Shown here one piece after another: positions 1,510 to 28,476 of a stretch of 30,425 nucleotides of DNA. Within the stretch, counting starts at the first letter, position 1. Each line of letters begins with the position of its first letter. The notes under the pieces are model-generated. The model was not told the DNA's origin. It did no database searches and was given only the letters and a program-made list of their open reading frames with translations. The translations under genes were made by a program, and so were the position numbers. The DNA lies in IMG/VR virus record IMGVR_UViG_3300010885_023949, positions 1 through 30,425 of that record; one strand, given 5' to 3'. Source of the DNA: a virus.

Positions 1510-4500
1510 TTACAATTCTTGTGCAACACCACCTAAATCACAATATAACACTGTTGTAGTGGTGGTTGTTGTTACAGGTATTACAGGTTCTGCTATTCCT
1601 TCTAATTCACAATTATAAGCAAACGCTATTCCTTCTAAATTACAATCTAAAACAGTAGTGGTGGTTGTAGTGGTGGAAGGTTGTGGAATCAATTCACCTA
1701 CAATAGCATCAATCTCACTACAGCAATCATTAAGTCCTGAATAGAAGAAGTTATTCTCAGCTACATACCAATTAGGTAAATAACTATGGAATGAAATCCA
1801 ACTCTTTGTATTAAGGTTAAATGAAACTGACCAAGACTTATTACAGAAATAATCAAGATCTGTAAGATACACTTGTGTTAATATCTCTACGTCATTCACT
1901 ATTTCTTTTATATAATATTCTTTTGTAATTGAATCATATATAATATTATTTGTTTTTGGAATATAGTCAAGCTTTGTAATAATTATTCTATCATACTTAC
2001 TATCAAATACACCATGTAATCCTACACCAGTGAAATGATTATCTGTATCTACTAATGGGAAGTATTTTATAATCTCAAAAGCTAAATGATCTGTAAACCA
2101 TCTATTCATACCAGAACCAAAACCTGTTAAATCTGTAGCTTGGTTACCAGCAATTAAGAACACTTGTCCCCTCTTAGCATCTATTGTTATTTGACCTTGT
2201 GGGATCTTTAATAACATTTTGTTTTGAGAGCCTACATATCCAAGATCTGTTTCTGCAAAATCAATTGGAGGAGAACTTCTGAATAATGAATCATTACCCA
2301 TGTAAGCAGCTTGTGGATTGCTTGTATTGATTGTTAATAAAGTGTTGTATAATAAACTCTTATTATCAAATCTAGCAAGAATAGCTTTATTCTCAATACC
2401 ATCTAATGATGTAAGACTGCCATAGTTCTGTGGAAAATCAAAATAAGCAATAGCTCTATAAATTAACCAATTGTTCACTATGGTAGTGACATCATTTATT
2501 TGAGGATCAGAATAAATTGCTCTAAATGGAAACACTGTTTTACATAGTTCAGGAGTCCAGTTAATAGGAAGATGACTGAAAAAGTTTTCTGTGTTTTGTT
2601 TAGAGAATGTAGTGTTGTAGTAATATGTATTATCTTGAGCAATTGTTACATTGCTTTCTTGTACCCAATCATCAGGTATATCTGTACTAACATGAGGCCA
2701 GAAATCTCCTTCTCTGTTATTAAAGGCTTGTCTTAAGTCTACATTATATCCTGATTCACAATAGAAATAAGGGATACCATAAGCAAACAAATACATCTTA
2801 CCATCATAGAAAGTTCTTCCTGGATTACTTTCAGGAGTTTGACTATTAGGACAATCTAGATTGTGAGCTTTAATTGATATAAAGTTTCTTAGATTTATAC
2901 CATCTACAGAAACATTACTAAGAACAGATCTTGCTGAAAACCAATATTCAGGATAGGCAACATTTCCTATCTCATCATAGTATATATCAGAATCATCAGG
3001 AGCTCCCACTCTATTATCTATAAAGAAAGGGAGTTTAGTTTTAAAAGCAAACTTACTAATAAACGTATCACCACCAAACACTGTATCATACACTGGTGCA
3101 AGAATAGGTGTAATATCTCTTTGGAATCCAGTATCTATTGTATCATATGAATAAATTTGTCCCCATTGATTTATAAATTGATTCTTTAATGAAGCATAAT
3201 AAGAAACAACAGAAGTGGAAGACACCTCTTCAGGTTTGCTACAATCTTTTTCAGATAGAACAAATCTTGAATCATCTGTAACTATAGGCACTCCACTAGG
3301 AGCTATAGATGGTGTTTTATCTGGAAATGGTAATGGTGGTTTATCAGCATCAGTTTTTAAATAAACTGAAGATTCTCTTTGCCAGTTGTTTATATTTTTA
3401 TTATCACCAACACTCTGTACACCAGGAATTAAATATTGAGCAATATCAAGAGTTCTTTGTTTAATACCTAATACACCATCTGAACTAGTAGCTGCATTGT
3501 TAATATAATCACTATAGTCATAACTACCTATTGAGTTAAATGAATAGGCATAGTTACGTCTAGTGATACCATTAATGTAAATAGTTAAATAAGCTTGGTA
3601 TGCTGCAAATAAAACAGAAGCGTCTAATGGTGCTGTTATAGAAGCAATGGCAGTGGAGCTCTTTAATGCATCTTCTTGAGCTTCCTTACTAATTAGTTTA
3701 TAAAGAGCATTCTTTCTCACTTGAACAAAATGAGCTCTACCAGCTCCAAACATTACATTTTCAAGTTTAAGAATATCTCCTAAGAATGGTTGACCAAAAG
3801 AAGTTTCTGGAGAGTTGAATACATGTCTATATTTAGAACCATCTGCATTAAATCCATCTAAGTTCTTAGGAACACAAATATCGTATCCTACAGATCCCAC
3901 CTTTGTAATATCATAATCGTTATCTCCTGATACCCATTCAGGAATAATTAATGAATTAAATGTAGATGTACCAATTACTTCTAATAGAGTTTTATTTGGA
4001 GGCTGGGTACAACATGCATTTGCTGGATTGTTTGCACAATAATCACAAATAGAAGTGTAAGGTGCAGGACTTCCACAAGCTCCTATAGCATCTACAGTGG
4101 GAAAATAAAAATTAAAAAATCCAGAAAATGATCCATCTCTAGGAGTGATTGTATATATATTATATGTGTTAGATTGAAAACATCCTTTACCACTAATAAT
4201 TCTTGGAGAAGGAAAATCAAGACAGCAAAAGTTTAAAATTTCTCCTACAGACGTAGCTTGTTTTGTAACAATTGTATTTGTATAGCAATCTATATATTCA
4301 ACTGTGAATATACCACCACTGAGTTCTGTAACAGTTACGCTAAAGTTTCTACATGTAGCATTACCACCATCTTTTGCATTTGCTGTATAAGCGTTATTCT
4401 GAGCTAGTAAGAATGGATCTATAGAAAGATCATTATAAGGATAGTTAGGATAGTAATATTCTGTTCCTTCTCTATCATACTTACCAACATTTCTAAGAAT

Positions 4501-6258
4501 ACCTTTAGCAACAATAGATCTATTTGTATTTCTATTACCTCTTACAATCTTAAATCCTTCTATATTATCTTTCTCAGTTTGTGAAAGACCTGATGAACCA
4601 ATTAACACTGCTATCTGTGATAAGTCTACACTTACACCAATAGGATATATAGCATCCTTTTGTACAGTCATTGCTCCTGGAGAGGAGAATATAGCTGACT
4701 CATAAATAGGACTTACAAGAGCATCTGGAAACTTATGATGTCTAATTGGTTGGTTTGATAAGTCTCCCCAAACTAATTCATTACATGGATAGGTTTCTGT
4801 TGATTCCCAATAAGCAAATTCACCATATTGATAATTACCTTTATAGCTAGTTGAATTATTATACTCTGGAGAAAATCCTGTTACAGTGGCACTATTATAT
4901 ATCTTCCACCAAGGACTAGTTCCTGTAAGAGGATCTGGTTCTCCTATAAAATCATTATTAGTAGGAGAAACAGGATATAGATCATTACCATTTGCACTTC
5001 TCCCTGGGATATGAAAGCCATCAGTTTGTTTACCATTTTTTAATAAGAATACAATTTCAAATGCATACACCTCATCACGCATGTATCCACGAAGGTTAGT
5101 TGCGTTAAGTCCATCAGCATAAGTTTCTGTGTTAGGAATTCTATATGATTGCCATTGAAGAGTTATTTGATTTGCTATTCTTTGGTAATTAACTTTATCT
5201 ATAGATGTTAATTGATCCCATACAAGAATATCTCTTACCATTGTAACATCTTGAGCTATTTCATAATATGGAAACTTCTCAAAAATGTCTTGAAGAGTTA
5301 GTCTTATTTGTTCTTGATTTTGTCCAGTGTAAGTTATTATTGTTGAAACTTCATCAATAAAATATGTACCAATTAATTCTACAGATGTAATTGCATTAAT
5401 GGTCTTTATAACAGCTAAGTTATAATATTGCCATTGTCCTGTTACATCTAGATTAGATATAGTGAGGTCAATAGATCTACCTACTGGATAATTAAAATTA
5501 GGAGTGGTGAGTTGTGGATCAGAAATAGGTGTGGGATTGGTTACTGAATAATAAGAAGAATAACCAAATCCTATAGCATCTGAATATTGAATAGAAAATT
5601 GATATGTACCAGCAATTAAATCTCCACCAGTATTGATGTCAGTCACCTCTAACTGAGGAATAGAAAAATTAGGTTGAAGTAATAATTGATTACAGTCAAG
5701 TTCTTCAGTAAATTGTGGATCACATAAATCTGAAAAATAAGTTTGAATATAAGGGATCTTATCTATATCTAGATATCTTCTAGGATTTAATCCATCAGTC
5801 CAATAAATTTCTGTAGTACAATTTGTTATCTTATGTACTGATTTATGAATAGGATTGTCAATGTTAAAGTTTAAACATTTAGCATTAACAAGAGTGTGAT
5901 ATAAACAATCATTGTTATCCATATATCCTATTTCAGAATCTCCTGTTTCAGGATTTACAATAAAGAATATATGTTTATTTTTTTCAAATATAGAATGAGT
6001 ACCAATCAGTTGATATCCTTCAGGAAAATCAAAACAAAGTTCATTCCCTGGTTCATTTTGATAATTGACAGAATTTGCATCAAAGTTTTCTACAGCAGCA
6101 TTTAAAGCATACGTAAGAGTGCCTTTACTAATCTGATTAATAGATTGATCTAAATTTAATCCAACAGTGGCACTGTTATATTCTTGATTAACAGCACTAC
6201 TATCAGGACTAACTAAATTCTTTATTTTGCTAACTATATTATTGTTATCTTCTGCCAT
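1510..6258 (-). CDS. Large tail (muzzle/stabilization-type) protein with poly-Thr tail
   Basis: 1582 aa, the largest protein in the window and in the place held in crAss-like phages by the muzzle protein (often annotated stabilization protein or P22 gp10-like tail hub), just after the ring proteins. The sequence is beta-rich, with many Tyr/Asn/Ser residues and aromatic motifs such as KSWSVSFNLNTKSWISFH near residue 1490, and has no transmembrane segment. The C-terminus is unusual: seven threonines at 1529-1535, a short Cys-containing stretch, seven more at 1563-1569, and three copies of a CxLxGxA motif (CNLEGIA, CELEGIA, CDLGGVA). These look like exchangeable surface tags added to a conserved body. 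Eight bases separate it from the upstream ring gene. Confidence 0.75.
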   Translation of the reverse strand: MAEDNNNIVSKIKNLVSPDSSAVNQEYNSATVGLNLDQSINQISKGTLTYALNAAVENFDANSVNYQNEPGNELCFDFPEGYQLIGTHSIFEKNKHIFFIVNPETGDSEIGYMDNNDCLYHTLVNAKCLNFNIDNPIHKSVHKITNCTTEIYWTDGLNPRRYLDIDKIPYIQTYFSDLCDPQFTEELDCNQLLLQPNFSIPQLEVTDINTGGDLIAGTYQFSIQYSDAIGFGYSSYYSVTNPTPISDPQLTTPNFNYPVGRSIDLTISNLDVTGQWQYYNLAVIKTINAITSVELIGTYFIDEVSTIITYTGQNQEQIRLTLQDIFEKFPYYEIAQDVTMVRDILVWDQLTSIDKVNYQRIANQITLQWQSYRIPNTETYADGLNATNLRGYMRDEVYAFEIVFLLKNGKQTDGFHIPGRSANGNDLYPVSPTNNDFIGEPDPLTGTSPWWKIYNSATVTGFSPEYNNSTSYKGNYQYGEFAYWESTETYPCNELVWGDLSNQPIRHHKFPDALVSPIYESAIFSSPGAMTVQKDAIYPIGVSVDLSQIAVLIGSSGLSQTEKDNIEGFKIVRGNRNTNRSIVAKGILRNVGKYDREGTEYYYPNYPYNDLSIDPFLLAQNNAYTANAKDGGNATCRNFSVTVTELSGGIFTVEYIDCYTNTIVTKQATSVGEILNFCCLDFPSPRIISGKGCFQSNTYNIYTITPRDGSFSGFFNFYFPTVDAIGACGSPAPYTSICDYCANNPANACCTQPPNKTLLEVIGTSTFNSLIIPEWVSGDNDYDITKVGSVGYDICVPKNLDGFNADGSKYRHVFNSPETSFGQPFLGDILKLENVMFGAGRAHFVQVRKNALYKLISKEAQEDALKSSTAIASITAPLDASVLFAAYQAYLTIYINGITRRNYAYSFNSIGSYDYSDYINNAATSSDGVLGIKQRTLDIAQYLIPGVQSVGDNKNINNWQRESSVYLKTDADKPPLPFPDKTPSIAPSGVPIVTDDSRFVLSEKDCSKPEEVSSTSVVSYYASLKNQFINQWGQIYSYDTIDTGFQRDITPILAPVYDTVFGGDTFISKFAFKTKLPFFIDNRVGAPDDSDIYYDEIGNVAYPEYWFSARSVLSNVSVDGINLRNFISIKAHNLDCPNSQTPESNPGRTFYDGKMYLFAYGIPYFYCESGYNVDLRQAFNNREGDFWPHVSTDIPDDWVQESNVTIAQDNTYYYNTTFSKQNTENFFSHLPINWTPELCKTVFPFRAIYSDPQINDVTTIVNNWLIYRAIAYFDFPQNYGSLTSLDGIENKAILARFDNKSLLYNTLLTINTSNPQAAYMGNDSLFRSSPPIDFAETDLGYVGSQNKMLLKIPQGQITIDAKRGQVFLIAGNQATDLTGFGSGMNRWFTDHLAFEIIKYFPLVDTDNHFTGVGLHGVFDSKYDRIIITKLDYIPKTNNIIYDSITKEYYIKEIVNDVEILTQVYLTDLDYFCNKSWSVSFNLNTKSWISFHSYLPNWYVAENNFFYSGLNDCCSEIDAIVGELIPQPSTTTTTTTVLDCNLEGIAFAYNCELEGIAEPVIPVTTTTTTTVLYCDLGGVAQEL
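1552..1572 (-). repeat. Poly-Thr tract, copy 1 (muzzle C-terminus)
   Basis: Seven threonine codons (mixed ACA, ACC, ACT), followed by VLYC. It contains the 16-base string GTAGTGGTGGTTGTTG (plus strand, 1556-1571), also present at 10435-10450. Confidence 0.8.
1654..1674 (-). repeat. Poly-Thr tract, copy 2 (muzzle C-terminus)
   Basis: Seven threonine codons after Pro-Ser, followed by VLDC. It shares the 13-base core GTAGTGGTGGTTG (plus strand) with the tracts at 1552 and 10428. Confidence 0.8.
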
Positions 6259-27464: not shown

Positions 27465-27931
27465 ATAAAAACTTATTTCCTTTTGCACACCATTCTCATG
27501 TGGATGTACATTTCTTGTCGTTACCCAGCTTTGTGGGTCAAGATGATGTAAAACCACACTAATTAATAATTGTATTTGGCAATAAGTCCATCATGTGTAT
27601 TAATTAGTCTTCCAAGGATGAGCAGTTGTAATACACATATAGACTCAGTTGAAACCTGGAGAGGCTAACAAGATAGCATTTTTAGAATGCAGGCCCAATC
27701 AATATCTCCTAAATACTGTTTAAGATGGTGTATGCAACACGTACTGTGATGGCTGTCTAGTAATAGAGAGATATGAATATCAGCGTATGTATTACAACTG
27801 AGTGTGTAGAAGGAATGCTTTAGCATAAGAGGTGATGAAACAATGCAGATTAGATGTTGACTAACAAATATCCATATAGACATGAATGGAGGTCTTGATT
27901 TATTACACACAATTTAAACACAGAAATCATT
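27465..27931 (+). ncRNA. Candidate structured non-coding RNA region
   Basis: 467 bases with no plausible gene, GC about ten points above the neighbouring genes in sampled lines. Self-complementary parts: ACCCA/TGGGT (27523/27534), ACTAATTAATA/TATTAATTAGT (27558/27598, 11 bp), GCATT/AATGC (27676/27686), ATATCTC/GAGATAT (27702/27768), CAGTTGTAATACA/TGTATTACAACTG (27623/27788, 13 bp), ACTCAGTTG/CAACTGAGT (27643/27795, 9 bp, exclusive with the previous), ATGC/GCAT (27815/27823), GTGTGTA/TACACAC (27802/27904). Size and structure recall large phage RNAs such as GOLLD or ROOL, but I do not recognise it as either. Strand is assumed from the flanking genes. Confidence 0.5.
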
Positions 27932-28237
27932 ATGAGCAAAATTAGAATATATGGATTTAAGTCCATATCAGTGAATGATTTATTAATTCACACTATTAAT
28001 GTCTCTGTTAGAAATACAGAGATGAATAAGAAAATATTATTAAATAATGATATTTGTTTTAGTGAAAAACAAATTATAAACAGAAGGACTAGTAGACATT
28101 CTTTTCTTTTAGAGATAGTTTATACCACCACTGATTCTAATTCTATATTTTCATTATATACTAGAGTGGGCAACGCATTAAAAAGTATTGCTCAAAATAA
28201 TTTAGATGAAAAATATTATTGGGTTCCTACAACGTAA
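27932..28237 (+). CDS. Small early protein, unknown
   Basis: 101 aa. Segments: KIRIYGFKSISVNDLLIHTI, NDICFSEKQIINRRTSRHSF, then LLEIVYTTTDSNSIFSLYTR and GNALKSIAQNN. Basic middle, beta-rich, soluble. First gene after the putative RNA; the leader TTAAACACAGAAATCATT resembles that of the next gene (TTTAGAAATC), which hints at a shared translation signal. No family recognised. Confidence 0.6.
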   Translation: MSKIRIYGFKSISVNDLLIHTINVSVRNTEMNKKILLNNDICFSEKQIINRRTSRHSFLLEIVYTTTDSNSIFSLYTRVGNALKSIAQNNLDEKYYWVPTT

Positions 28238-28254
28238 ACAAACATTTAGAAATC

Positions 28255-28476
28255 ATGAAATCATTATTATTATTAGCAATATACATTGCTTCATTTATTA
28301 TTATTTTCTTTATTACATCCCTTCCTGGATATGTATTTATTGGTTCTTATAAAGCTGTAATTTATTGTACAGCTTGGCAAGTGATGTATTCATTCTTTAT
28401 TGGATGGTGGATGGCAATATTGCCAGCAAGAGAGTATTATTTTTTAAACAAAGAGTATTTTGATAAAATATTTTAA
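28255..28476 (+). CDS. Two-pass small membrane protein
   Basis: 73 aa from ATG 28255 (MKSLLLLAIYIASFIIIFFI); an upstream TTG start is unlikely because it overlaps the previous gene's end. Two hydrophobic segments (about 2-22 and 32-52, the second with WWMAILP), and a charged C-terminus (AREYYFLNKEYFDKIF). One base separates its stop from the next ATG. Inner-membrane early protein of unknown role; superinfection exclusion is a common job for such genes. Confidence 0.6.
   Translation: MKSLLLLAIYIASFIIIFFITSLPGYVFIGSYKAVIYCTAWQVMYSFFIGWWMAILPAREYYFLNKEYFDKIF

What the first reader, a model, noticed from the sequence alone, without database searches (positions are those of the whole stretch)
27465..27931. 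Large structured RNA candidate with mutually exclusive helices
A 467-base gene-free segment between early genes has at least eight complementary pairs, including 11-bp and 13-bp perfect helices. Two upstream arms, 27623-27635 and 27643-27651, both pair with the same downstream strand (27788-27803) and share CAGTTG, so only one can form at a time. That is a switch-like design. One sampled 60-base line has 22 G/C against 16 in a coding line just upstream. No ribozyme or tRNA consensus was recognised.
Basis: partly seen in the sequence, partly recalled or inferred. Interest (0 to 1): 0.75.

Follow-up and report, generated by a model that had tools for sequence, protein, structure and literature searches.

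The report
Twister-like RNA in crAss-like phages
Between two early genes of an environmental crAss-like phage lies a real, conserved folded RNA: its front half has the architecture of the twister self-cutting ribozyme (more than 110 relatives found in phage contigs, missed by the standard RNA database), its back half is an undescribed knotted RNA, and this particular copy has lost the cutting site while keeping the fold.

Summary
The gap 27465-27931 contains a conserved structured RNA on the + strand, but not the proposed switch. It has two modules. (1) 27477-27815 is a diverged member of an RNA family laid out P1-UAA-P2-P4(loop UUCCCAAGG)-P5-P2'-GAGGG-P1': the stems, internal loop and T1 pseudoknot of the twister ribozyme. 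At least 111 distinct copies were found in IMG/VR phage contigs. All five helices carry compensatory changes, and P1 pairs in exactly the twister register (z about 8-9). Rfam's twister models do not detect these copies, and the canonical GC/GC T2 is absent. The window copy belongs to a subclass with an extra domain (P6, P7) inside P4. It has lost the U-A cleavage site (UAA to UUU) and P1, yet kept P2, P4, P5, P6, P7 and T1 by compensatory changes, so it is probably a non-cleaving derivative. (2) 27816-27896 is a new pseudoknot plus two hairpins, covarying in 23 distinct sequences and shared by phages whose terminases are 25-98% identical. No Rfam family matches it. The 9-bp arm behind the switch idea occurs in only 2 of 111 copies and is chance-level. 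Self-cleavage is predicted, not shown.

The parts
27477..27815 (+). Module 1: diverged twister-like RNA domain (P6/P7 subclass)
   Evidence: homology to L025/L095/L085 and >110 copies; helices below
27481..27483 (+). Position of the twister cleavage motif UAA, here UUU (lost; also lost in L025)
   Evidence: comparison with 92 parsed copies, all AA and 89/92 U at this place
27484..27490 (+). P2 5' strand UGCACAC (pairs with 27802-27808 GUGUGUA); two base pairs longer than the family's 5-bp P2
   Evidence: P2 covaries in relatives: UGCAC/GUGCA, UGCAU/AUGCA, UGCGU/ACGCA, UGUAC/GUACA, UGUAU/AUACA, UGUGU/ACACA
27495..27499 (+). P4 5' strand CUCAU (pairs with 27618-27622 AUGAG)
   Evidence: 16 different P4 stem sequences in 92 copies, all complementary; covaries also across the P6/P7 insert
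27500..27557 (+). P6 domain inserted in P4: GUGG/CCAC with inner stems UCUUG/CAAGA and ACCCA/UGGGU
   Evidence: shared by >15 relatives, GUGG/CCAC versus GUAG/CUAC (L132, L151, L184)
27558..27608 (+). P7 hairpin, 11 bp (27558-27568 / 27598-27608)
   Evidence: CUGAUU/AAUCAG in relatives versus CUAAUU/AAUUAG here; several compensatory variants
27609..27617 (+). L4 loop CUUCCAAGG; UCC (27611-27613) can form pseudoknot T1 with GGA (27812-27814)
   Evidence: relatives CCC/GGG (88) and CCA/UGG (4); here UCC/GGA, a third matching variant
27623..27800 (+). P5-like long hairpin: 27623-27635 / 27788-27800 (13 bp), variable tip 27636-27787
   Evidence: conserved CAGUUGUA stem, 7 of 9 counted pairs with two-sided changes
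27643..27651 (+).
   Evidence: 2 of 111 copies
27802..27814 (+). P2 3' strand, then GAAGGA, equivalent of the GAGGG of the family (general-base G and T1)
27816..27896 (+). Module 2: 3' pseudoknot module, found by covariance model R1 at 68 bits
   Evidence: 23 distinct sequences in A2; model R1; E 1.7e-12 in the window (the window is in the training set), independent hits L064, L128, L220 at 42-47 bits
27817..27833 (+). S1 helix GCUU (27817-27820) / AGGU (27830-27833) of the H-type pseudoknot
   Evidence: 99% of cells paired, 3-4 of 4 pairs with two-sided changes
27823..27846 (+). S2 helix GCAU (27823-27826) / AUGC (27843-27846); loop GAUGAAACA
   Evidence: invariant by the search pattern, so untested by covariation
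27853..27872 (+). Hairpin GAUGUU..AAUAUC
   Evidence: a hairpin here in all 23 sequences examined, with compensatory changes
27878..27895 (+). Terminal hairpin AGAC..GUCU
   Evidence: AGG/CCU, AGAC/GUCU, UACAU/AUGUA, CAACAC/GUGUUG in relatives

Best explanation
The segment encodes a structured RNA transcribed with the early genes (+ strand). Shown by sequence comparison: its 5' module belongs to a family with the stems, internal loop and T1 pseudoknot of a type-P1 twister ribozyme that has P5 but no P3, here with an extra P6/P7 domain in P4; and it is followed by a second conserved pseudoknotted module. Inferred: in intact relatives the 5' module folds as the transcript is made and cuts it between U and A of UAAUGC. 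That cut would free the 3' end of whatever lies upstream and leave a compact 5'-OH folded end on the RNA below, which would process and stabilise pieces of the early transcript. In the window copy the cut site is gone (UUU), P1 is lost and P2 is 2 bp longer, while P2, P4, P5, P6, P7 and T1 are kept by compensatory changes. It most likely no longer cuts, and its fold has been kept as a 5' cap or landing structure for the pseudoknot module and the gene behind it.
For: At least 111 distinct copies. Pair counts over 27 pairs: 93.9% paired against 79.5% shuffled; 21 pairs with two-sided changes against 13.1; covariation score 0.453 against 0.173, 0 of 500 shuffles; slid versions collapse. P1 pairs only in the twister register: 33 full 4-bp helices against 7.0 expected, z 8-9. 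L4/L1 pseudoknot CCC/GGG 88 times, CCA/UGG 4 times, no mixtures. L1 spacing and letters equal Rfam's twister-P1 consensus (UAA / GAGGG), and the loop shares UCCCAAG. Model R2, built only from the phage copies, also picks up Rfam's twister-P1 match in L177 at the same coordinates, 854-924 (17.6 bits, E 0.11). Copies are intergenic: 6 of 72 overlapped by an ORF over 100 aa, next ORF downstream on the same strand in 60 of 71. Hatchet, pistol and a GOLLD RNA occur in the same contigs, several near copies; ribozymes are reported to lie near other ribozymes (PMC10085705). Module 2: S1 99% paired with changes on both sides.
Against: Rfam's twister-P1 and twister-P5 models do not score the copies. The two-base T2 pseudoknot (GC/GC) of twister is missing; at best one invariant C-G could replace it. 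P2 is 5 bp rather than 4, and the review reports that changing P2 may disturb the active site. P1 cells are paired only 67.6% of the time. No cleavage or transcript data exist. The P5 stem is unusually conserved in sequence, which plain twister function would not need and which partly reflects the search pattern. Model R2 does not recover the window copy itself; its membership rests on L095, L085, L122, L224 and others of the P6/P7 subclass.
Confidence: 0.66

Rival explanations
1. A non-catalytic structured leader: the family uses the twister-like fold as a protein-binding or stability element (5' cap of early mRNAs, or landing site for a phage protein), and no member cuts.
For: The lower P5 stem CAGUUGUA/UACAACUG is strongly conserved in sequence; window, L025 and the GAGAG variants (L138, L217) lack the U-A site or T1 but keep the other helices.
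Against: UAA (U in 89/92), the whole of L1, and T1 including its double change are kept in typical copies, which the active site would demand and a plain scaffold would not.
Confidence: 0.22
2. A switch-like RNA with two mutually exclusive arms.
For: The 9-bp competitor exists in the window. In the window the 14-bp outer helix 27477-27490 / 27802-27815 and T1 compete for 27812-27814.
Against: The competitor occurs in 2 of 111 copies and is chance-level; the outer-helix alternative was seen only in the two derived copies, window and L025.
Confidence: 0.04
3. A DNA-level element (inverted repeats bound by a recombinase or replication protein, or a mobile repeat) rather than an RNA.
For: P5 is a long inverted repeat; the family is multi-copy, with tandem copies in some contigs (L154, L202, L224).
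Against: G-U pairs, a covarying loop-loop pseudoknot, strand asymmetry of the conserved loops and same-strand bias with neighbouring genes point to RNA.
Confidence: 0.05
4. A GOLLD- or ROOL-like large ornate RNA forming oligomeric cages.
For: Same kind of phages; a GOLLD match ends 10 nt before a copy in L154.
Against: No Rfam GOLLD or ROOL match in the window; different, smaller architecture.
Confidence: 0.03

Closest known systems
Twister ribozyme, type P1 (Rfam RF03160)
   Same: Order P1-UAA-P2-P4-P2'-GAGGG-P1', 3-nt and 5-nt sides of L1, conserved C-G inside P2, P4 loop UCCCAAG, T1 loop pseudoknot, optional P5 at the right place
   Different: No GC/GC T2, P2 of 5 bp, no P3, 9-nt loop UUCCCAAGG, conserved P5 sequence, P6/P7 insert in a subclass; not scored by Rfam models; window copy lacks the U-A site
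Twister type P5 (RF02684) and type P3
   Same: Same core; P5 known as an optional stem
   Different: Not circularly permuted here; no match to the P5 model
GOLLD RNA (RF02032)
   Same: Large phage ncRNA of lake phages, often beside tRNAs; one lies next to a family copy in L154
   Different: No sequence or structure match to the window; different fold
Hatchet and pistol ribozymes
   Same: Occur in the same phage contigs, presumably similar use in transcript processing
   Different: Different folds; pistol also has a pseudoknot but no match to module 2

Membership tests
Twister ribozyme (family copies) | Essential stems P1, P2, P4 in order | tested here: met
   P2 99.4% and P4 100% paired with two-sided changes; P1 pairs in the exact register, z 8-9, though only 67.6% of cells
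Twister ribozyme (family copies) | L1: scissile U-A followed by A; 3' side GAGGG | tested here: met
   U in 89/92, AA in 92/92 (AA partly set by the search), GAGGG 88 and GAUGG 4
Twister ribozyme (family copies) | Pseudoknot T1 between L4 and L1 | tested here: met
   CCC/GGG and CCA/UGG only
Twister ribozyme (family copies) | Pseudoknot T2: conserved GC in L2 with two bulged nucleotides of L4 | tested here: not met
   J2/4 is CAUU, CAUAA and the like; L4 ends AAGG; at most one invariant C-G (definition from PMC5408937). So I call it a twister-like variant, not a plain member
Twister ribozyme (family copies) | Scores above Rfam cut-off | tested here: not met
   No match in canonical copies; only L177:855-923 at 48.5 bits, cut-off 67.2
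Twister ribozyme (family copies) | Self-cleavage at U-A | not testable with these tools
   needs in vitro transcription
Twister ribozyme (window copy) | Intact cleavage site and P1 | tested here: not met
   UUU at 27481-27483, no P1 in register, P2 7 bp
Twister-like family of this report (window copy) | P4 enclosing P6/P7, P5, P2 and T1 | tested here: met
GOLLD / ROOL / group I intron / tRNA / tmRNA | Match to the Rfam or ARAGORN model | tested here: not met
RNA switch with exclusive arms | Both alternative helices conserved | tested here: not met
   2 of 111 copies

The most novel reading that the evidence does not exclude
A new RNA class of crAss-like phages: a twister fold rebuilt with its own P6/P7 domain and an altered T2, coupled to an undescribed pseudoknot module, in which some lineages, including this one, have turned a self-cleaving ribozyme into a non-cleaving regulatory or protective RNA.
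Probability: 0.35. Interest if true: 0.85.

Novelty: new variant of a known kind. Interest (0 to 1): 0.72.

Why it matters
If right, at least a hundred ribozymes in an abundant phage group have been invisible to the standard models, and they offer natural variants of twister with an altered T2 and an inserted domain: a direct test of what the active site needs. Lineages that keep the fold after losing the cut site would be a natural case of a ribozyme becoming a structural RNA. The second module is a conserved pseudoknot, shared by phages with terminases as little as 25% identical, with no known function.

Tried and rejected
Rfam scans at gathering and relaxed thresholds: only chance snoRNA-type hits on the window. 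DNA similarity to named phages: none, except a 30-nt match in Roseobacter phages CRP-13 and CRP-6 within a 46-nt gene gap, judged chance. 'Switch' arms: not conserved. Pistol, hammerhead, group I or tRNA reading of module 2: no match; comparison partly from memory. A second DNA pattern for module 2 found nothing because the spacing varies. Both patterns were absent from 84,980 bacterial and archaeal genomes, and R2 finds nothing in four named phages (Leptolyngbya phage Lbo-JY46, phi17:2, cr130_1, csAssE-Sib). In L075 module 2 appears to overlap an ORF; not resolved. The S2 pair counts on A2 (helix 2) were made with the columns off by one and are meaningless; S2 is invariant by search design anyway.

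Full report
WHAT THE WINDOW IS. The window is a 30,425-base virus record. It carries a crAss-like phage block: portal (P22-like), a large-terminase relative and structural genes on the - strand up to about 25.4 kb, then small early genes on the + strand. The terminase is 80-98% identical to the best 80 IMG/VR loci and 39% identical to Leptolyngbya phage Lbo-JY46.

THE OBSERVATION. The gap is exactly 27465-27931, between a TAA and an ATG, with no plausible gene. Its GC is 34.7% against 26-27% around it. Its 13-bp and 11-bp perfect helices exceed chance (1/400 shuffles for the first, 0/400 for both together), while the 9-bp 'competitor' does not. Folding is better than shuffles on the + strand only (z -2.0 against -0.4).

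MODULE 2 (27816-27896). nhmmer of the gap against the terminase loci found L025 (E 2e-10) and a short conserved 3' element in L078, L075 and L064. Scanning IMG/VR for AGCATAAGNGNNNATGAAACAATGC gave 29 stretches. The letters on either side that the pattern left largely free pair in 99% of cells in one register and not in others. This defines an H-type pseudoknot (S1 free and covarying, S2 GCAU/AUGC fixed by the pattern), followed by two hairpins whose stems change in a matched way in 23 distinct sequences. Of the 29 contigs, 21 carry a relative of the window's terminase, 25-98% identical, and 17 a relative of its 517-aa structural protein. Model R1 also found L064, L048, L128 and L220 without the pattern. 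No Rfam family matches.

MODULE 1 (27477-27815). About 15 of the 23 distinct module-2 loci have, usually within 10-60 nt upstream, a second conserved part (counted by eye). None occur in 84,980 GTDB genomes with two exact patterns. Parsing 92 copies: U(89/92)-AA-P2(5 bp)-J-P4(5 bp)-UUCC(C/A)AAGG-P4'-P5-A-P2'-GA(G/U)GG. P2 occurs in six matched versions, P4 in sixteen, and the loop-to-GAGGG pseudoknot as CCC/GGG (88) or CCA/UGG (4). Over 27 pairs on A4: 93.9% paired, 21 pairs with two-sided changes, 0 of 500 shuffles as high; sliding destroys the signal. A4 was made from spliced rows: the tip of P5 was replaced by GAAA in every row, and P5 was cut to at most 9 bp. P5 was also partly selected by the pattern, and P4 of at least 4 bp was required by the parser, so those two counts are the least independent. 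P1 was free of both, and the P4 sequence variety was not selected.

TWISTER ARCHITECTURE. Rfam's twister-P1 consensus reads ..UAA-P2-..-UCCCAAG loop-..-P2'-GAGGG.. (seen in the L177 match). The spacing (3 nt and 5 nt of L1), the letters and the T1 pseudoknot agree. A further prediction, that the bases just before UAA pair with those just after GAGGG (P1), was tested and met: 33 full 4-bp helices against 7.0 with shuffled partners, z 8-9, and nothing in other registers. R2, trained only on phage copies, also finds the Rfam twister in L177 at the same place. Not met: the GC/GC T2 of twister and the Rfam score (T2 definition from PMC5408937). I therefore call it a twister-like variant. Cleavage is inferred, not shown.

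THE WINDOW COPY. It belongs to a subclass in which P4 encloses an extra domain: GUGGAUAUAAAGACUUCUUAG..CUAAGAUGUGAAACCAC (P6) and CUGAUUAA..UUAAUCAG (P7). P4 pairs across this domain in matched variants, P6 changes GUGG/CCAC to GUAG/CUAC, and P7 varies with pairing kept. In the window UAA is UUU and P1 is gone; P2 has grown by two matched base pairs, T1 would be UCC/GGA, and P7 shows a G-C to A-U change. The bases 27809-27815 could instead extend P2 into a 14-bp helix with 27477-27483, as in L025 (coordinates; L025 sequence). L085 and L095, close relatives (97% and 91% terminase), keep UAA. So the fold appears to have outlived the cut site.

LOCATION AND USE. Copies are intergenic and mostly co-directional with the next gene (60/71). 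A homologue of the window's small membrane-protein gene (28219-28476) lies downstream of the element in L085, L095 and L083, though immediate neighbours differ. Contigs of 100 kb or more hold 0-2 R2 matches, an undercount because R2 lacks P6/P7. Hatchet, pistol, freshwater-1, tRNAs and one GOLLD lie in the same contigs; in L154 the predicted cut site is about 10 nt after the GOLLD 3' end. A processing role - cutting early transcripts and leaving a compact 5' end - fits best, and is inference.

THE SWITCH. The second arm is present in 2 of 111 copies. I see no support for two exclusive states as described.

LITERATURE. No paper in the held library joins twister, ribozymes and Crassvirales; the Crassvirales-plus-ribozyme hits do not appear to describe this (titles and abstracts only). 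Weinberg's group searched for further twister permutations and reported no promising candidates (PMC10085705); this variant is not a permutation, so there is no conflict. Subscription papers and preprints are largely outside the library.

LIMITS. Retrieval used exact patterns, so conservation of S2, of GCAGAGGG and of the lower P5 is overstated. Host and transcription are unknown. All functional statements are predictions.

Noticed in passing
L154:4367-4761: GOLLD RNA match (100.8 bits, below the curated cut-off of 150) ending about 10 nt before a twister-like copy; the predicted cut would define its 3' end.
   Followed up: partly
L120:6387-6553, L114:5635-5767, L117:2975-3112, contig of L217: Hatchet ribozymes above cut-off in contigs with the element, about 1 kb upstream of copies in L114 and L120.
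   Followed up: partly
L109:2664-2725; L102:1793-1854; L109:668-729; L196 just after its copy: Pistol ribozyme, freshwater-1 RNAs, and a hammerhead-like stretch (by eye) in the same phage group.
   Followed up: no
L106:5575-5815: Three-tRNA array (anticodons tca, gca, cat) right after the element in the window's closest relative; tca could be a UGA suppressor.
   Followed up: no
L106 about 4233-4632 and 4960-5342: Two tandem diverged copies of the whole two-module RNA.
   Followed up: partly
just 5' of copies in L085, L088, L094, L116, L150, L176, L186, L206, L215: Another hairpin module CCUAAGCAnGUGnnUAAACUGCUUA whose stem changes in a matched way.
   Followed up: no
L087 and L089, right after module 2: tRNA-like fold with acceptor-like stem UGGUCAAG/CUUGACCA and a T-arm but no D-arm; terminator-like short version in L086, L092, L119, L180.
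   Followed up: no
L138 and L217 upstream region: Relatives with GAGAG instead of GAGGG and no CCC loop (CACUAACC..AAGGUGAACAG): a further subclass without T1.
   Followed up: no
L091:2049-2452 (-): tmRNA gene in a phage contig carrying module 2.
   Followed up: no
L075:5420-5496 (-): Module 2 overlaps an ORF reading ..SISGDETMQSLYT..; coding and RNA roles not separated.
   Followed up: no
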